Below are positions 35,308 to 42,561 of a DNA stretch of 64,000 bases, in pieces (the first letter of the stretch is position 1; each line of letters begins with the position of its first letter). Where the stretch lies: contig NZ_KB893146.1 in NCBI RefSeq assembly GCF_000374005.1, forward strand, positions 250,075 through 314,074, given 5' to 3'. Below the pieces are notes generated by a model. That model had not been told where the DNA came from and made no database searches. It saw only the letters and a list, made by a program, of their open reading frames with translations. A program made the position numbers and the translations under genes. The stretch is from Kiloniella laminariae DSM 19542 (GTDB taxonomy: Bacteria; Pseudomonadota; Alphaproteobacteria; Kiloniellales; Kiloniellaceae).

Positions 35308-35787
35308 TCAGAAATTGTCTTTTACATGCAGGATATTGGTGTTCTTGACTTCTTCCATGACCACATAGCTGTGAGTCTGGGAGACACCGGGAGCCGCAGC
35401 CAGCTTGTCGCCCAAAATTCCCCGATATTCAGTCATATCTGCTGCCCGAACTTTGATTAGATAGTCGAATCCGCCAGAGACCATATGACATTCCAGTACT
35501 TCCGGGATTTGCATAATGGTGGTTTTGAATTCTTCAAAAAACGCAGAGGTGGTTTTTTCGAGGGTAATCTGAACAAATACCAGCAGATTGACGTTGATTT
35601 TGGCCGGGTTAAGCGTCGCCATATACCCCTTGATATAGTTGCTCTGCTCCAGCCGCCGTACCCGTTCAAGGCAGGGGGTCGGGCTGAGGTTGACCCGGCG
35701 GGCCAGCTCAACATTGGAGATGCGGCCATCTTCCTGGAGGACGCGCAGAATGTTGCGATCAATTCGATCAAGGGTTCGTTCTGTCAT
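35308..35787 (-). CDS. putR: Lrp/AsnC-type regulator, probable proline-responsive activator of putA
   Basis: A 159-residue Lrp-family protein. The N-terminal helix-turn-helix is LDRIDRNILRVLQEDGRISN with ARRVNLSPTPCLERVRRLEQ (about 5-50). A RAM ligand-binding domain follows (about 70-150), with ECHMVSGGFDYLIKVRAADM. It is divergent from putA with only about 120 bp between the starts, the arrangement known for PutR of Rhizobium, Agrobacterium and Rhodobacter, which activates putA in response to proline. The assignment depends on that context. Confidence 0.88.
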   Translation of the reverse strand: MTERTLDRIDRNILRVLQEDGRISNVELARRVNLSPTPCLERVRRLEQSNYIKGYMATLNPAKINVNLLVFVQITLEKTTSAFFEEFKTTIMQIPEVLECHMVSGGFDYLIKVRAADMTEYRGILGDKLAAAPGVSQTHSYVVMEEVKNTNILHVKDNF

Positions 35788-35907
35788 ATCGGAATATATA
35801 ACTATAAAAATGCTAATTTACTAGAGAAAATATCGTGTATTTTTGATAAATGGCAGCACATATCGCTGATTGTGCGATACTCTCTTTGTGCTCTGGTTAT
35901 CATCGGG

Positions 35908-38900
35908 ATGCTGGAGGTGAGCTTTGACAACGCGGTTTCCGGGATTGAAAAGATGATCATTGATAAAGAAATGGCCAATGCGACCCCTTTGATGGCAGCG
36001 CTACGCAGCGCCTATCGCATGGATGAGAGTGCAGCTGTAAAGGCCCTGATTGCCTCTGTCGATTTTCCGAGTGAGGCCCTGGACAGGATTTCTGCCCGTG
36101 CCCGGGATCTGGTCAAGGAAGTTCGCAAATCCCGTGTTGGACAGGGCGGCATTGATGCTTTCATGCACGAGTTTGAATTGTCTTCTAAAGAAGGTGTGGT
36201 TCTGATGTGCCTAGCCGAAGCTTTACTGCGGGTGCCGGACAGTGAAACCATCGACAAGTTGATCCGTGACAAGCTGACTTCGGCTGACTGGGAAGCGCAT
36301 CTCGGCCATAGTGAATCCCTGTTTGTAAATGCCTCGACCTGGGCGCTGATGCTGACTGGTCGGGTTGTGACGATCAAAAAAGAAGAAAGCCGCGATCTTT
36401 CCAATCTGCTGCACAAAATGGTGCAAAAAAGTGGTGAGCCTGTCATTCGCAAAGCTGTACGCCAGGCAATGAAGATTCTGGGCAAGCAGTTCGTCATGGG
36501 CCGCACCATTAAAGAAGCTCTTGTTCGCGCTGTTGAGGAAGAGAAAAAAGGCTATCGCTATTCATACGATATGCTGGGCGAGGGTGCCCGGACCATGCCG
36601 GATGCGGACCGCTATTTCGAGGCTTATCGGGCCGCGATTGAAAAGATCGGTGCTGCGGCCAAGGGGCGTGGTGTAATCAGCTCTCCTGGTATTTCAATTA
36701 AACTTTCCGCCATTCATCCCCGCTATCAGTTCAGTCATCTGGACCGGGTCATGAACGAAGTTGTTCCGCGTTTGAAAGCTCTGGCTCTTGATGCAAAAAA
36801 ATATGACATCGGTCTGACGATTGATGCTGAAGAAGCCGACCGTCTGGAAATTTCCCTCGCGGTACTCGAAGCAGTATCTGGCGATCCTGATCTAAAAGGC
36901 TGGAGCGGCCTTGGGCTGGCGGTTCAGGCTTACCAGAAACGCGCCCCTTTTGTTATCGACTGGCTGGCTGATATGGCCCATCGTCACGGGCGCCGTCTGA
37001 TGGTCCGGCTGGTCAAAGGGGCCTATTGGGACACGGAAATCAAGGTTGCCCAGGAACAAGGCCAGGATGGTTATCCGGTCTATACCCGCAAGATTTCTAC
37101 CGATGTTTCCTATTTGTCCTGCGCCCGCAAGATGCTGGCTGATCCAGAAGCTTTCTATCCGCAATTCGCCAGCCATAACGCGCACACCGTGGCCTCCATT
37201 CTAGAGATGGCCAAAGTCGGACAGGACTTTGAATTCCAGCGCCTGCACGGTATGGGAGAAGCCCTTTATGAGCAGGTCGTCGGTAAAGAGGGCAAGGGAT
37301 ATCCCGTGCGCATCTATGCGCCGGTTGGCAGTCATGAAGATCTCCTGGCGTATCTGGTCCGGCGCTTGCTGGAGAACGGTGCAAACTCTTCCTTTGTCAA
37401 TCGTATTCAGGATGAAAAACTGCCGATTGACGAGATTATTGCCGATCCGATCCAGAAGGCGCGCTCTCTGTTTAATATTCCGCACCCGCAGATTCCTTTG
37501 CCGCTCAATCTCTATGGAACCGAGCGTCAGAACTCCCTCGGACTGGACCTGTCAGATGCGCCAAAACTGGTTGATCTGGGAACAAAGATGAAAGCTTTTG
37601 CTTCGACGGGCTGGAGTGGAGGCCCGATCATTGGTGGTCTGGAAGTTCCAGGTGCCAAGCAAAAGGTGACATCACCTTCTGATCGCCAGGACAAGGTCGG
37701 TGAAATGGCCTGGGCCTCAAGCGAGCAGGCTGAGCAAGCAGTCGCCCGCGCGGATCGCGCCTGGTGGGGCTGGAACAAGACACCGGCTGCCAAGCGGGCG
37801 GAATGTCTTGAACGCATGGCCGATCTGATGGAAGAAAATACCCCGGAATTGATGGCGCTGTGTATGCGGGAAGCCGGAAAAAACACGGCGGATGCAATTG
37901 CCGAAGTACGTGAAGCGGTTGATTTTTGTCGCTATTATGCCGTGCGCTGTCGCCGTGAATTTGGAGATGCGATGGTGATGCCTGGCCCCACTGGAGAGCG
38001 CAACGAGTTGTCCCTGCAGGGACGTGGTGTCTTCCTCTGTATCAGCCCGTGGAATTTCCCGCTGGCGATTTTCCTTGGGCAGGTCAGTGCGGCATTGGCT
38101 GCCGGGAACGCTGTCATTGCCAAACCGGCTGAGCAGACCGGGCTGGTTGCTGCTGCAGCAATCAAGCTGTTCCACCGTGCAGGTGTACCGGGGGATGTAT
38201 TACACCTTCTGCCAGGGGATGGCCCGACAGTTGCCGGACCACTGTTATCAGATGAGCGGATCAAGGGGGTTGCCTTTACCGGCTCAACCGAAACCGCCAA
38301 GCTGATCCAGCGGGCGCTTGCGGCGCGTGATGGCGAGATTGTGCCCTTGATCGCCGAGACGGGCGGGCAGAACGCCATGATCGTGGATTCAACGGCGCTA
38401 CCGGAACAGGTGGTACGGGATGTGTTGCTGTCCTCTTTCCAGAGTGCAGGGCAGCGGTGTTCAGCGCTTCGGGTGCTTTTCCTGCAGTCGGATGTGGCTG
38501 ATAAAGTTCTGACCATGCTGGGCGGGGCCATGGACGAGTTGACCATCGGGGATGCGGCGGATCTGGCAACGGATGTTGGTCCTGTGATTGACGAAGATGC
38601 CCAGGCCATGCTGACAGCGCATATCGAACGCATGCGCAAGGAAGCGAAGGTTATTCGGGACTTGCCTTTGCCAGCCTCTACCGCAAAGGGGACATTCGTT
38701 GCGCCTGCGGCCTTTGAGATTGCGGGGCTTCATGTGCTGCAAAAGGAAATCTTTGGCCCCGTGCTGCACGTTATCCGTTTCAAGGCCTCCGAGCTCGACA
38801 GCATTATTGACCAGATCAACAACTCCGGCTTTGGCCTGACCCTGGGTATTCACAGCCGCATTGACGAAACCGTCAATCACATCTGTCAGCGGGTGCGCGT

Positions 38901-39090
38901 GGGCAATGCCTATGTCAACCGCAACCAGATCGGCGCGATTGTCGGGGTCCAGCCTTTTGGTGGTACCGGGCTTTCCGGCACAGGACCCAAAGCAGGCGGT
39001 CCGCGCTATCTGCACCGTTTTGCCACGGAATATGCGGTCAGTATTGATACAACGGCGGCAGGTGGAAACACCTCGTTGATGACGCTCTAG
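35908..39090 (+). CDS. putA: Bifunctional proline dehydrogenase / L-glutamate gamma-semialdehyde dehydrogenase PutA
   Basis: Oxidises proline to glutamate in two steps. The open frame extends upstream through the divergent regulator; the first suitable ATG past it is 35908 (1060 residues), with 35953 an alternative (1045 residues, GGGA upstream). FAD proline dehydrogenase domain: RLVKGAYWDTEIK and RIYAPVGSHEDLLAYLVRRLLENGANSSFVN. Aldehyde dehydrogenase domain: ISPWNFPLAIF, AETGGQNAMIVDS and the catalytic cysteine C851 in SAGQRCSALR. There is no N-terminal ribbon-helix-helix domain, so it is not self-regulating, which fits an Lrp-type activator next door. Confidence 0.96.
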   Translation: MLEVSFDNAVSGIEKMIIDKEMANATPLMAALRSAYRMDESAAVKALIASVDFPSEALDRISARARDLVKEVRKSRVGQGGIDAFMHEFELSSKEGVVLMCLAEALLRVPDSETIDKLIRDKLTSADWEAHLGHSESLFVNASTWALMLTGRVVTIKKEESRDLSNLLHKMVQKSGEPVIRKAVRQAMKILGKQFVMGRTIKEALVRAVEEEKKGYRYSYDMLGEGARTMPDADRYFEAYRAAIEKIGAAAKGRGVISSPGISIKLSAIHPRYQFSHLDRVMNEVVPRLKALALDAKKYDIGLTIDAEEADRLEISLAVLEAVSGDPDLKGWSGLGLAVQAYQKRAPFVIDWLADMAHRHGRRLMVRLVKGAYWDTEIKVAQEQGQDGYPVYTRKISTDVSYLSCARKMLADPEAFYPQFASHNAHTVASILEMAKVGQDFEFQRLHGMGEALYEQVVGKEGKGYPVRIYAPVGSHEDLLAYLVRRLLENGANSSFVNRIQDEKLPIDEIIADPIQKARSLFNIPHPQIPLPLNLYGTERQNSLGLDLSDAPKLVDLGTKMKAFASTGWSGGPIIGGLEVPGAKQKVTSPSDRQDKVGEMAWASSEQAEQAVARADRAWWGWNKTPAAKRAECLERMADLMEENTPELMALCMREAGKNTADAIAEVREAVDFCRYYAVRCRREFGDAMVMPGPTGERNELSLQGRGVFLCISPWNFPLAIFLGQVSAALAAGNAVIAKPAEQTGLVAAAAIKLFHRAGVPGDVLHLLPGDGPTVAGPLLSDERIKGVAFTGSTETAKLIQRALAARDGEIVPLIAETGGQNAMIVDSTALPEQVVRDVLLSSFQSAGQRCSALRVLFLQSDVADKVLTMLGGAMDELTIGDAADLATDVGPVIDEDAQAMLTAHIERMRKEAKVIRDLPLPASTAKGTFVAPAAFEIAGLHVLQKEIFGPVLHVIRFKASELDSIIDQINNSGFGLTLGIHSRIDETVNHICQRVRVGNAYVNRNQIGAIVGVQPFGGTGLSGTGPKAGGPRYLHRFATEYAVSIDTTAAGGNTSLMTL

Positions 39091-39114
39091 TCCTGACTGA
39101 TATGGTTAAAAAAA

Positions 39115-39147
39115 GCAAACCCGGTTGCCATCAGCAACCGGGTTTGC
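39115..39147 (-). terminator. Strong hairpin after putA
   Basis: A perfect 14-bp stem (GCAAACCCGGTTGC at 39115-39128 and its complement at 39134-39147) has a 5-nt loop. The T-run lies on the minus strand (AAAAAAA upstream on plus). In the putA direction only the stem is present, so it may act mainly as a stabiliser or barrier. Confidence 0.6.
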
Positions 39148-39241
39148 TGTTGCCTGCTCATGGCTATGGCGTGCCAAGGCTGCTTGCTGTAAGTCTTGTT
39201 ATCGAAGGACATAAGGCCTGAAAAGCAGCGGGAGTGTATAG

Positions 39242-39799: not shown

Positions 39800-40459
39800 C
39801 TAAAGTTTTTCTATGAACCTTTCTCCTTTGAAACAGCGTACAGGGTTTCCTCGCTCCAGTTGATGATGCTTGAGGTTTTCATCTCGCTGGGCCCCGGCGT
39901 GGAAAAGAGAATGCTGAACCGATAACTGTTCAGATAAACGTTGAAGAGCGAGCTGTTTGTTGCGGTGTTGTGATCTTTGATCACGGGCAATTGCTGTTAG
40001 CCCTGTGGGCTGATGGATGGCACGAACTGCGCTATCCGTTGTGTTTTGGTGCTGGCCTCCGGGACCACCAGCCCTAAAGGTTTCAAATTTCACATCGGAC
40101 GGCTCAATTTCTTGTGGCAGATCCGGTTGATGATCAATATTGAAGACGCCCACAAACCAGTTTTGACGCCGATGACCCGGCCGGGATGTGCTTGGGGAAA
40201 TCCATTGGATCGTTCCCAGCCATCTGTTGGCAAAAGCTTTGGCACAATCTCCGTAAAGGAGAACAATGGCTGAAGCAGGAAGATTTTCTCCATGTGCTGA
40301 TTTTCCTGTGGCTTTATCAAAAACGATTTCGCAATTTATGCCCCGATCATCAGCCTCATCTGAGATCTTTTTCAACACATGACGTACGGCGACTTTACAT
40401 TCTGTTGGGCCATTTCCACTGGTGACCAGAAGGCGCAACGAAGCAGGAAAATTATTCAT
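39800..40459 (-). CDS. prfH: Peptide chain release factor H (PrfH)
   Basis: A 219-residue class I release-factor homologue. The GGQ catalytic loop is intact in [20 protein letters not shown] (GGQ at 134-136), followed by [20 protein letters not shown] of domain 3. The N-terminal 115 residues are unlike the codon-recognition domain of RF1/RF2, and there is no PxT or SPF anticodon tripeptide, as expected for PrfH. PrfH is reported to free peptides from ribosomes damaged in the 16S decoding centre. It overlaps rtcB by eight bases, the conserved partnership, so the two are co-translated. Confidence 0.92.
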
Positions 40460-41630
40460 GAGTGTTTCTCCTGCTTGTTGGTTTATTTTTTTCTGGTCTG
40501 GCTTTCTTGAAAGTAACGATAGGTTTGAACGCAGCGACTGTGATCGCCAGTTGTTTCTCTGTCAGTTCTTTCAAAACCTGTACAGGGCTTTTATAGGCAT
40601 CAGGAGCCTCTTCTATAAGAAGATGCTTGTCCTCGCATACCACATGTCCTCCATAAGAGGTTCTGCTTAGTCTGAGCTGGTCAGATTTTCTGTTCTTCAG
40701 GCGTCCATGCATTGAGCTCCGATCATATTTTCGCCCAGCCCCATGGGAGATAGAAAAGAGGGATTCCTCATTACTGTTGGTTGGTTTCAAGAGGTAGCTT
40801 AGGGAGTCTCTTGAGCCAGCTAGTGGTACAAAGGGGATATCTGCTTTAGCTGCTCCTTTTCGGTGGAGGAAAGCACCTTTCATTCCTTCGATCAGATTAT
40901 GAGGTGAATCTGAAAGAAGCCTTGCTTCGCTCCGAAGAGCCTTAGCCGCGCGTTGGGCGATGATTTGGCGGTTTAGACTGGCCCAGGCGACAGCTTGATC
41001 GTGCCGGGCCAGATAGTCGATGGCCTGGGGATGGTCGGGATACAGATCAGCAGGACCTTGAGAACAGATCTCTTCAAAAATTGCAGTTCCAAAACTCCGG
41101 GAACCGGAATGAATAAGGAGATAAGAGGCGCCCCTGATGAGGCCTGATTGTTCCGCCAGCTCTTGATTATGAACTTTGTCGAGAATCTGTAGTTCGCAAA
41201 AGTGATTGCCACCACCAATCGTGCCTAGACTTGTGGGGGATGCATCTAATGGTAAGCCCCATTTTTCGAGAAGGGGAAAAGGATCACCTTCCCAGATGCC
41301 CTCAAGAGATCTAAGTCGGTTGGCGGCCTTTTCTGCTCGTATCTTTCTTGCAGGAAGATCAAGTATGAAAAGCGACATGCCACATCCAATATCGTTTCCA
41401 ACCAGTTGAGGGTGCAACAAGTTAGAGAGAATTGCTGTGCCGACAGGTCCATATTTTCCTGGATGAAGATCAGGAAAAGCTGCGACCTGTAACACATTAC
41501 TCATTTGTGCGACGCGATGAAGTTGTTCTTCAGCCTTGCCTTCAATCCAGACGTCTGGGGAGTAAAATTTTCGAACGGGAGCACCCTGCCATTCTGTGTG
41601 CAGGGGGGCGTTCGTTTTTGAAGTGCCCAT
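40452..41630 (-). CDS. rtcB: RNA ligase RtcB, PrfH-associated type (RtcB3-like)
   Basis: A 392-residue GTP-dependent 3'-phosphate RNA ligase. Metal and active-site residues are recognisable: D80 and C83 in [10 protein letters not shown]143 in [10 protein letters not shown]174 in [10 protein letters not shown]244 in SPHNLIEG, and the guanylylated histidine H296 in [14 protein letters not shown]. The subtype coupled to prfH is the one reported to reseal 16S rRNA cut in the decoding centre; here that is inferred from the eight-base overlap with prfH. The ribosome site is weak (AAAGG) and touches a predicted stem in the leader. No RtcR regulator or RtcA is seen. Confidence 0.93.
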
Positions 41631-41966
41631 GTAATTGGCCTTTAAAAACAGGAGTACGCACCTGAAAGAGAGACTTTCAGGAGACGTCCCAGACGAAGCC
41701 GAAATTTCAGCCTAGTTTGGGAGAATTGCCTCAAGGGGCAAACGGTCAAAATCACGCATTTTTTGCTCCTGTTTTTAAAGTTTCAAAGGTTTAGGGGGCT
41801 CATATGGGAGCCTCTCCCCAAGGAAGAAAAGATACTATCTTCAACGTTGAAATACCTTTAGCTCTCTATCGCTTCAAGATAAATCTCTTGTTGTGTTGTA
41901 TAAAAGCATCTGTCTGTGATATTTTTGCACCAGTTGTTTTGTGGAGGTTGCCGCGAGTTTGTTCTA
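41631..41966. other. 336-bp gap upstream of rtcB
   Basis: It contains the inverted-repeat-bounded element at 41640-41780 and about 185 bp of moderately AT-rich DNA. I see no classic sigma-54 (GG-N10-GC) element of the RtcR-regulated kind. A 68-codon frame on the plus strand (41804-42010) is not convincing. Confidence 0.5.
41640..41780 (-). promoter_or_regulatory. Candidate structured leader RNA of rtcB-prfH
   Basis: A perfect 15-bp inverted repeat (CTTTAAAAACAGGAG at 41640-41654, complement at 41766-41780) encloses 111 bp. Inside are three further stems: 41661-41668 with 41674-41681 (8 bp, 5-nt loop), 41687-41691 with 41718-41722 (5 bp), and 41726-41730 with 41737-41741 (5 bp, 6-nt loop). 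Transcribed towards rtcB, the outer stem ends ten bases before the start codon and includes most of its AAAGG ribosome site. This could form a multibranch leader controlling translation. A small transposable element with terminal repeats is an alternative, but no flanking duplication is seen. Confidence 0.5.
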
Positions 41967-42536
41967 TTACACCAGATGGTTCAGGGCGTCGTCGCTGGGG
42001 GTTACTTTAGCGTAGGCAAAGGCAAGTGCTGACATAAAGGCGGCATGAACCTGTTCAGCGGGAATAGTAACCCCTTTGAATTCAAGGTCGCGGGTGGCGC
42101 AGGCGTCTTCAGCCACAACACAGTCAAAGCCATGGTCGGATGCAGCGCGGGTCAGGGCATCAATGCACATATGGCTCATCGAGCCTGCAATGACCAGCTT
42201 TGTAAATCCTTGTTTCTTCAATATTTCAAGCAATTCCGTATTTTTAAAGCCGTTGATTTCGGATTTGATCACCACTGTTTCGTTTTCTTTGGGGGTGACG
42301 GCTTGATGAATAGCTGCCCCTCCTGTCCCAGGAGCAAAGAACGGGGCATCCGCCGTATCGGAAATATGCTGGATATGAATAACCGGAAGAGAGCGTGAAC
42401 GGCAATGTTCCAGCAATTTTTGCGCCTTTTCAGCAGCTTGTTCCTGTTTTTGCAGCGGCCAGTTTCCACCCAGAAAATAATCGTTCTGGATATCAACAAG
42501 GATCAGGGCAGTTCTGGTGGTATTTTCTGGATGCAT
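41967..42536 (-). CDS. Isochorismatase-fold cysteine hydrolase
   Basis: A 189-residue hydrolase started at the ATG at 42536, which has AGAGGGA eight bases upstream; the frame extends to 42554. The triad is visible: Asp in LILVDIQNDYF, Lys in VIKSEINGF, and Cys in SMSHMCIDALTRAASDHG. The substrate is unknown. It is transcribed divergently from a GlxA-type regulator across 116 bp with a palindrome, a common layout in which the regulator controls the hydrolase. Confidence 0.88.
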   Translation of the reverse strand: MHPENTTRTALILVDIQNDYFLGGNWPLQKQEQAAEKAQKLLEHCRSRSLPVIHIQHISDTADAPFFAPGTGGAAIHQAVTPKENETVVIKSEINGFKNTELLEILKKQGFTKLVIAGSMSHMCIDALTRAASDHGFDCVVAEDACATRDLEFKGVTIPAEQVHAAFMSALAFAYAKVTPSDDALNHLV

Positions 42537-42561
42537 GATGTTTTCCCTCTGCATGTAAAAT

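What the first reader, a model, noticed from the sequence alone, without database searches (positions are those of the whole stretch)
41640..41780. Inverted-repeat-bounded, three-arm element in front of rtcB-prfH
Seen directly: a perfect 15-bp inverted repeat encloses 111 bp with three further stem-loops (8, 5 and 5 bp). The outer stem closes ten bases before the rtcB start and covers most of the weak ribosome site. Inference: a structured leader that senses cleaved or unligated RNA, or an uncharged state, and sets RtcB translation. A substrate-like leader cleaved by the same nucleases that trigger repair would make a simple feedback switch. I know of no described riboregulator of this operon type.
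Basis: partly seen in the sequence, partly recalled or inferred. Interest (0 to 1): 0.75.

Follow-up and report, generated by a model that had tools for sequence, protein, structure and literature searches.

The report
Leader-peptide switch before ribosome-repair genes
Just before the rtcB-prfH ribosome-repair genes lies a folded RNA with a tiny leader peptide gene, in which one stem hides the ribosome-binding sites of both the peptide and rtcB, so ribosomes that get stuck on the leader could switch on their own repair; a leader peptide was already known for this operon in Pseudomonas, and this is a differently built version.

Summary
The inverted repeat is real (perfect 15 bp, 111-nt spacer, one copy in the genome) and lies on the strand of rtcB2-prfH. 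The 3' arm covers 4 of 5 bases of rtcB's AAAGG, so one stem locks both sites. Both congeners found with prfH (2 of 8) have the element. SD-led mini-ORFs precede rtcB2 in 46 of 69 loci (2.9 expected) and 33 of 39 fetched later (1.5 expected). The outer stem changes sequence but keeps pairing (swap test z -7.4; controls -1.6 to +0.7). In a fold model, a ribosome on the mini-ORF start eases opening of rtcB's site in 14 of 30 alphaproteobacterial leaders, strongly in the window. Closest known: leader peptide PA5471.1 of the P. aeruginosa armZ(rtcB2)-prfH operon, where ribosome stalling switches the operon on. Best reading: an alphaproteobacterial leader-peptide attenuator, probably translational, sensing ribosomes that start but cannot elongate. 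Substrate-mimic and transposon readings are not supported. The kind is known, the layout new; the mechanism is inferred.

The parts
41766..41780 (-). 5' arm of the outer stem P0 (RNA sense CUUUAAAAACAGGAG)
   Evidence: perfect inverted repeat, fold, co-variation
41766..41770 (-). Ribosome site AGGAG of the leader ORF, inside the 5' arm, six bases before its ATG
   Evidence: sequence; duplex energy with the anti-SD -6.6 kcal/mol
41712..41759 (-). Leader ORF, 15 codons plus stop: MRDFDRLPLEAILPN*
   Evidence: translation; 15-codon ORF at the same place in G002 and G008
41726..41741 (-). Hairpin P1 within the leader ORF, 5 bp
   Evidence: part of it in the best fold; 80% of cells paired in 8 leaders
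41688..41721 (-). Hairpin P2, overlaps the leader stop codon (41714-41712)
   Evidence: 71% of cells paired in 8 leaders
41661..41681 (-). Hairpin P3, 8 bp
   Evidence: 52% of cells paired in 8 leaders, alignment poor there
41640..41654 (-). 3' arm of the outer stem P0 (RNA sense CUCCUGUUUUUAAAG)
41639..41643 (-). Presumed weak ribosome site AAAGG of rtcB2, 4 of 5 bases inside P0
   Evidence: sequence
40452..41630 (-). rtcB2, RNA ligase of the prfH-linked family
   Evidence: TIGR03073 318.9 bits, cut-off 271.8; NF007153 396.1 bits is below its cut-off of 407
39800..40459 (-). prfH, peptide chain release factor H, overlaps the end of rtcB2
   Evidence: TIGR03072 208.7 bits, cut-off 166.65

Best explanation
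A leader-peptide attenuator of the rtcB2-prfH ribosome rescue and repair operon. Healthy ribosomes pass the 15-codon leader quickly; the outer stem closes again and hides both the leader's and rtcB's ribosome sites (OFF). A ribosome that has initiated on the leader but cannot elongate stays on the 5' arm, holds the stem open and frees the rtcB site (ON), so RtcB2 and PrfH are made when decoding-dead ribosomes accumulate. Shown by computation: the leader ORF, the stem joining both ribosome sites, their conservation and co-variation, the operon. Inferred: control of translation rather than transcription, the start-parked ribosome as trigger, and rRNA damage at the decoding centre (or other early stalls) as natural signal.
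For: Leader ORF with SD in the 5' arm. SD-led ORFs of 10-20 codons before rtcB2 in 46 of 69 loci against 2.9 expected; 4 of 36 rtcB genes without detected prfH against 1.7; 2 of 47 other genes of the same loci, and 33 of 39 later loci against 1.5. Outer stem: swap test z -7.4, 0 of 20000 permutations, n=29, control windows z -0.3, -1.6, +0.7; in-register alignment of 8 leaders, 89% of cells paired, covariation 0.269 against 0.139 shuffled and at most 0.121 slid. Opening cost of rtcB's site in the window: 15.3 kcal/mol alone, 9.3 with a ribosome on the leader start, 15.3 mid-ORF, 14.7 at the stop; mean of 24 alpha leaders 9.1, 6.6, 9.2, 8.8. Same operon in P. aeruginosa: leader PA5471.1, ON when ribosomes stall, when the leader is deleted or with an amber codon 3 (passages). 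Colicin E3-cut ribosomes initiate at about 75% of normal but form no detectable codon-recognition complex (passages of PMC2615495).
Against: No expression data for this organism. RNAalifold on 23 leaders predicted no pair. True arms are the best partner in only 5 of 29 rows and in the top three in 10, since relatives share arms. In one search, pairs changed on both sides (4) are reached by 109 of 500 shuffles. G008 folds weakly (z -0.97) and its rtcB site opens less easily with a start-parked ribosome (7.0 to 9.3). Counting six further alpha leaders tested and left out, only 14 of 30 open more easily by 1 kcal/mol or more. In some searches the rtcB site of the window still costs 9 kcal/mol with the ribosome in place. 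23 of 69 loci, among them all seven actinobacterial ones, lack the ORF by my criterion.
Confidence: 0.7

Rival explanations
1. Leader-peptide attenuation of transcription: full translation of the leader lets a terminator form, a stalled ribosome prevents it, as proposed for PA5471.1.
For: Two papers give this for the P. aeruginosa leader of the same operon (passages). In the window the P0 3' arm CUCCUG is followed by UUUUU, which could resemble a terminator tail.
Against: The scan found no terminator-like site on the rtcB strand in 41500-42100. The U-run is inside the P0 stem and is absent in several relatives' arms, such as L230 and L049. One paper calls the P. aeruginosa mechanism translational. 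Neither control level was measured here.
Confidence: 0.18
2. One reading: a substrate-like RNA that is cut by the nucleases that trigger repair, or is bound by RtcB or PrfH, and so feeds back on RtcB.
For: Branched fold before an RNA ligase gene; not tested by any search.
Against: The conserved features include an SD-led ORF; inner hairpins are less conserved than the outer stem; no Rfam match and no tRNA in the window.
Confidence: 0.05
3. An amino-acid or drug-specific stalling peptide, of the trp/his or erm kind (these kinds recalled).
For: Short leader ORF before the regulated gene; Q3 and F4 of PA5471.1 matter in a cca mutant (passage).
Against: Leader peptides differ between groups, and in gamma- and betaproteobacterial leaders the same nucleotides are read in three frames; no residue run in the window's peptide.
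Confidence: 0.06
4. A transposable element with terminal inverted repeats.
For: Perfect terminal inverted repeat.
Against: One copy in the 4.44-Mb genome; the best other match is 29 bases at 31 bits. Same position with arms of other sequence in relatives.
Confidence: 0.01

Closest known systems
PA5471.1 leader peptide of the armZ (PA5471)-prfH (PA5470) operon, Pseudomonas aeruginosa
   Same: Same two-gene operon; short leader ORF (13 residues there, 15 here) before the rtcB-like gene; ribosome stalling on the leader linked to expression of the operon (passages).
   Different: About 250 bp upstream there, 129 nt start to start here. Proposed there: terminator from segments 3 and 4. Here one stem joins the two ribosome sites and no terminator was found. 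armZ also controls an efflux pump there. I did not obtain the PA5471.1 sequence, so RNA-level homology is untested.
RtcB2-PrfH operon of E. coli
   Same: Homologous genes; the E. coli copy examined has a 15-codon SD-led leader ORF, MTNPLSMTLCRPFQD. The operon protects E. coli ATCC25922 from colicin E3 (title and passages of PMC9223846); the K-12 homolog ykfJ was induced by 4-azaleucine (passage of PMC3516279).
   Different: Different RNA layout: in-ORF GCAGAC with downstream GUCUGC. The words leader and UTR do not occur in PMC9223846 or PMC1586002.
erm-type translational attenuators (recalled, not looked up)
   Same: Stalled ribosome on a leader ORF frees the ribosome site of a gene that protects the ribosome.
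   Different: There a drug-specific peptide stalls inside the ORF; here peptides vary and the model favours a ribosome at the start.

Membership tests
Leader-peptide attenuator of rtcB2-prfH operons (PA5471.1 kind) | Operon of an RtcB-like gene and prfH downstream | tested here: met
   TIGR03073 and TIGR03072 above cut-off, overlapping genes
Leader-peptide attenuator of rtcB2-prfH operons (PA5471.1 kind) | Short leader ORF with ribosome site upstream of the rtcB-like gene | tested here: met
   15 codons, AGGAG; present in G002 and G008
Leader-peptide attenuator of rtcB2-prfH operons (PA5471.1 kind) | Alternative RNA structures coupled to ribosome position | tested here: inconclusive
   model energies support it in the window and 14 of 30 alpha leaders, G008 goes the other way
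Leader-peptide attenuator of rtcB2-prfH operons (PA5471.1 kind) | Transcription terminator in the leader (as proposed for PA5471.1) | tested here: not met
   no terminator-like site on the rtcB strand in 41500-42100; the feature is itself disputed
Leader-peptide attenuator of rtcB2-prfH operons (PA5471.1 kind) | Induction when ribosomes stall on the leader | not testable with these tools
   needs reporters or ribosome profiling
Known Rfam RNA family | Match to a covariance model | tested here: not met
   window 0 matches; 20 related loci gave only four tRNAs of L072
Transposable element | Further copies in the genome | tested here: not met
   one full copy

The most novel reading that the evidence does not exclude
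Ribosome-parking leaders are the general sensory arm of rtcB2-prfH systems in Alpha-, Beta- and Gammaproteobacteria and travel with the operon, also on plasmids. They read not an amino acid or a drug but whether a ribosome that has initiated can leave the start codon. At least two RNA layouts reach the same logic: one stem locking two ribosome sites in alphaproteobacteria, a chain of alternative pairings in gamma- and betaproteobacteria. It would be a built-in damage sensor against ribosome-cutting toxins, and PA5471.1 would be its best-studied member.
Probability: 0.4. Interest if true: 0.8.

Novelty: new variant of a known kind. Interest (0 to 1): 0.62.

Why it matters
It would explain how cells make ribosome-repair proteins only when needed: ribosomes with a broken decoding centre can still start on a leader but not move on, and the leader turns that into synthesis of the ligase and release factor that rescue them. 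It would place the P. aeruginosa PA5471.1 switch, studied as a regulator of drug efflux, in a wider family whose original task may be ribosome repair, and offers laboratory E. coli and harmless alphaproteobacteria as test systems.

Tried and rejected
Mobile element: one copy only. tRNA or known RNA family: none at the element.

RNAalifold on 23 alpha leaders gave no pairs: MAFFT does not keep the arms in register. I used an alignment-free swap test (an earlier version with wider windows, n=17, gave z -4.8) and a smaller alignment of 8 window-type leaders. In one search two of five measures were unremarkable (4 pairs with both sides changed, reached by 109 of 500 shuffles; 8 further pair types, reached by 246 of 500).

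Gamma/beta-type leaders: R2:R3 swap z -5.6, R1:R2 z -3.0, R3:R4 z -2.6, but a control window gave z -3.0, so this test is not clean there; their pairing rests on the arms listed, where 2 of 19 (L085, L219) have no convincing partner. A start-parked ribosome eased the rtcB site by 1 kcal/mol or more in 9 of 22 of them.

A covariance-model search and a structure prediction were considered and not run.

Rows dropped or uneven: of the 64 prfH-positive loci, L048, L051 and L062 (near copies) were left out; nine loci were added without a prfH test of their own; L225 was skipped for lack of upstream DNA (69 of 70 counted). L231 was left out. The alpha sets were chosen for a recognisable leader, some with a weaker ribosome site than the criterion, so they are not random samples. 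One search holds 24 leaders and leaves out L047, L052, L059, L060, L061 and L118, none of which fell by 1 kcal/mol. rtcB starts were placed by script and look wrong in some loci (e.g. L045, L062, L085, L250-L252, L254, L255, L260), which affects distances there. The prfH-less control includes actinobacterial members of the rtcB2 family. The scans were capped at the best 80 loci each; only L139 was used.

Full report
WHAT IS THERE. The element at 41640-41780 is real. Its outer repeat is perfect over 15 bp, encloses 111 nt, and is one of two perfect 15-bp inverted repeats of span up to 200 in the window. Its RNA on the rtcB strand folds at -58.5 kcal/mol, z -6.1, 0 of 200 shuffles as stable. The downstream genes are rtcB2 (TIGR03073) and prfH (TIGR03072), both above their cut-offs. 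The outer stem ends nine bases before the rtcB ATG. The genome holds one full copy; the next best match is 29 bases at 31 bits.

On the rtcB strand the element holds a 15-codon ORF, 41759-41712, MRDFDRLPLEAILPN*, with AGGAG six bases before its ATG. That AGGAG is the inner end of the 5' arm of the outer stem. The 3' arm overlaps the presumed rtcB site AAAGG (41643-41639) in four of five bases. One stem therefore closes two ribosome sites. Hairpin P1 lies inside the ORF, and its stop codon lies in hairpin P2.

IN THE GENUS. Of the 8 congeners (one 77% complete), G002 and G008 have a real prfH; the hits in the others are those of ordinary release factors by their low scores. Both carry the element before rtcB2, each with a 15-codon ORF: MRDLRHLPLKAISLN and MHVSRCLPLGVMILS. 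The outer stem is kept with changes: A-U to G-C at one pair between window and G008, U-G for C-G in G002, and one broken pair in each of G002 and G008.

MORE WIDELY. RtcB2 relatives were collected from plasmids, genome contigs (best 80) and sampled genomes. With one criterion (ATG, 10-20 codons, ribosome-site energy -5.5 or better, stop 45-170 nt before rtcB) 46 of 69 loci have such an ORF; dinucleotide shuffles predict 2.9. The criterion was set after I had looked at many of these leaders. Among 36 rtcB genes without a detected prfH it is 4 (1.7 expected); among other genes of the same loci 2 of 47. With the criterion unchanged, 39 loci fetched afterwards, each with a prfH-like match in the locus, gave 33 (1.5 expected, 21 distinct peptides; many are close kin). 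Four of the six misses (L228, L230, L231, L239) have an ORF with a weaker ribosome site at the usual distance. The seven actinobacterial, two epsilonproteobacterial and three sphingomonad loci were all misses, though L077 has a longer, 31-codon ORF.

THE OUTER STEM CO-VARIES. In 24 alphaproteobacterial leaders the distance from leader start to rtcB start is 117-134 nt, and the two flanking regions pair with duplex energies of -8.3 to -22.0 kcal/mol. The arms differ, for example CUUUAAAAACAGGAG (window), CUGUUGCA (L230), CCAGAAAA (L236), CUUCGAAA (L049). When each 5' region is paired with every 3' region, true partners reach -14.3 kcal/mol on average and swapped ones -10.2 (z -7.4; 0 of 20000 permutations; n = 29); three control windows gave z -0.3, -1.6 and +0.7. 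True partners are best of all in 5 of 29 rows and among the top three in 10, as relatives share arms. In an alignment of eight window-type leaders 89% of cells in the stem are paired, four pairs change on both sides (eight cells, reached by 1 of 500 shuffles), and the covariation score is 0.269, against 0.139 in shuffles (0 of 500 reach it) and at most 0.121 when slid. The number of pairs changed on both sides alone is not unusual (109 of 500). P1, P2 and P3 are paired in 80%, 71% and 52% of cells. RNAalifold on 23 leaders predicted nothing. Folding z is below -1.65 in 14 of 17 alpha and 12 of 24 gamma/beta-type leaders, against 8 of 36 control regions.

A SECOND LAYOUT. In gamma- and betaproteobacterial leaders the ribosome site of the ORF can pair with an in-ORF CCUUUGCAGG, and that stretch can pair with a downstream GGCCUGCCAAU-like segment: GCAGAC/GUCUGC in E. 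coli, GCGGAC/GUCCGC in Proteus, 15 bp in L223. Seventeen of 19 leaders listed have a convincing partner. The shared nucleotides are read in all three frames, so RNA rather than peptide seems to be conserved. The swap test for this set has an unclean control (z -5.6 against -3.0). In E. coli 5343 of 5426 genomes match at least part of the 181-base leader query and 2282 cover 80% or more.

HOW IT MAY WORK. I computed the cost of opening the rtcB site (-18 to +3) with a ribosome footprint at different places. In the window: 15.3 kcal/mol alone, 9.3 with a ribosome on the leader start, 15.3 at mid-ORF, 14.7 at the stop. Means for 24 alpha leaders: 9.1, 6.6, 9.2, 8.8; a fall of 1 kcal/mol or more in 14 of 24 at the start and 6 of 24 at the stop; 2 of 24 rise at the start. 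Six more alpha leaders, tested only, show no such fall, so 14 of 30 in all; G008 rises from 7.0 to 9.3. In the gamma/beta-type set 9 of 22 fall at the start and none at the stop. This favours a switch that is ON while a ribosome lingers at the leader start. It fits damaged ribosomes: colicin E3-cut ribosomes initiate at about 75% of normal but bind no detectable ternary complex in the codon-recognition assay (passages of PMC2615495), and RtcB2-PrfH protects E. coli from colicin E3 (title and passages of PMC9223846). Shown: sequence, conservation, co-variation, model energies. Inferred: control of translation, start-parked ribosome as trigger, natural signal.

WHAT IS KNOWN. In P. aeruginosa the same operon, PA5471 (armZ)-PA5470 (prfH), has a 13-residue leader peptide, PA5471.1, about 250 bp upstream of PA5471. 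Ribosome-targeting drugs induce armZ through it; loss of cca raises ribosome association with its mRNA; deletion of the leader or an amber codon 3 raises ArmZ (passages of PMC12057347, PMC13041342, PMC3516279). The 2009 paper behind this is not held. PMC12057347 and PMC13041342 describe transcription attenuation, as a proposal in the former; PMC3575510 says translational attenuation (passage). PMC3516279 also says that the E. coli homolog ykfJ was inducible by 4-azaleucine. So the kind is known. New here are the layout (one stem over two ribosome sites, no terminator by the scan), the host group, and the evidence that such leaders accompany this operon in several proteobacterial groups. The searches 'PrfH, RtcB', 'prfH, leader peptide', 'PA5471, PA5471.1, leader', 'ArmZ, RtcB', 'rtcB2, prfH, regulation, leader', 'ykfJ, prfH' and 'PA5471, attenuation, translational, RtcB' listed no paper that, by title, start of abstract or the passages I opened, describes leaders of this operon outside Pseudomonas. 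I did not open all papers listed, and the library lacks most subscription papers. One genome-wide entropy scan lists the E. coli region before prfH/ykfJ as candidate 98 in a table (passage of PMC4448311).

VERDICT. A new variant of a known kind, with well-supported anatomy and a plausible, testable, unproven mechanism.

Noticed in passing
39114-39148: Perfect 15-bp inverted repeat with a 5-base loop just after the putA-like ORF (35485-39090, +), probably a terminator.
   Followed up: no
41967-42554 (-), and G002:C11:280194-280769, G008:C1:35368-35916: An isochorismatase-family gene lies upstream of the leader on the same strand in all three prfH carriers of the genus; the G002 copy has an internal TAA in the match.
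   Followed up: partly
L050, L051 (Shinella plasmids), locus 1-1248: A second, separate RtcB-family gene is annotated directly upstream of the leader and rtcB2-prfH.
   Followed up: no
L055 (IncC conjugative plasmid, Klebsiella pneumoniae): rtcB2-prfH with its leader ORF sits on a conjugative plasmid next to sul1, so the unit is carried by plasmids.
   Followed up: no
L277, L278 (E. coli ST540 and K-12 MG1655): Genomes in which rtcB2 is annotated as incomplete still hold all or part of the leader region.
   Followed up: partly
L082, L083 (epsilonproteobacterial loci), just before rtcB2: An SD-led short ORF seems to run into or end close to rtcB2, missed by the criterion used; seen by eye.
   Followed up: no
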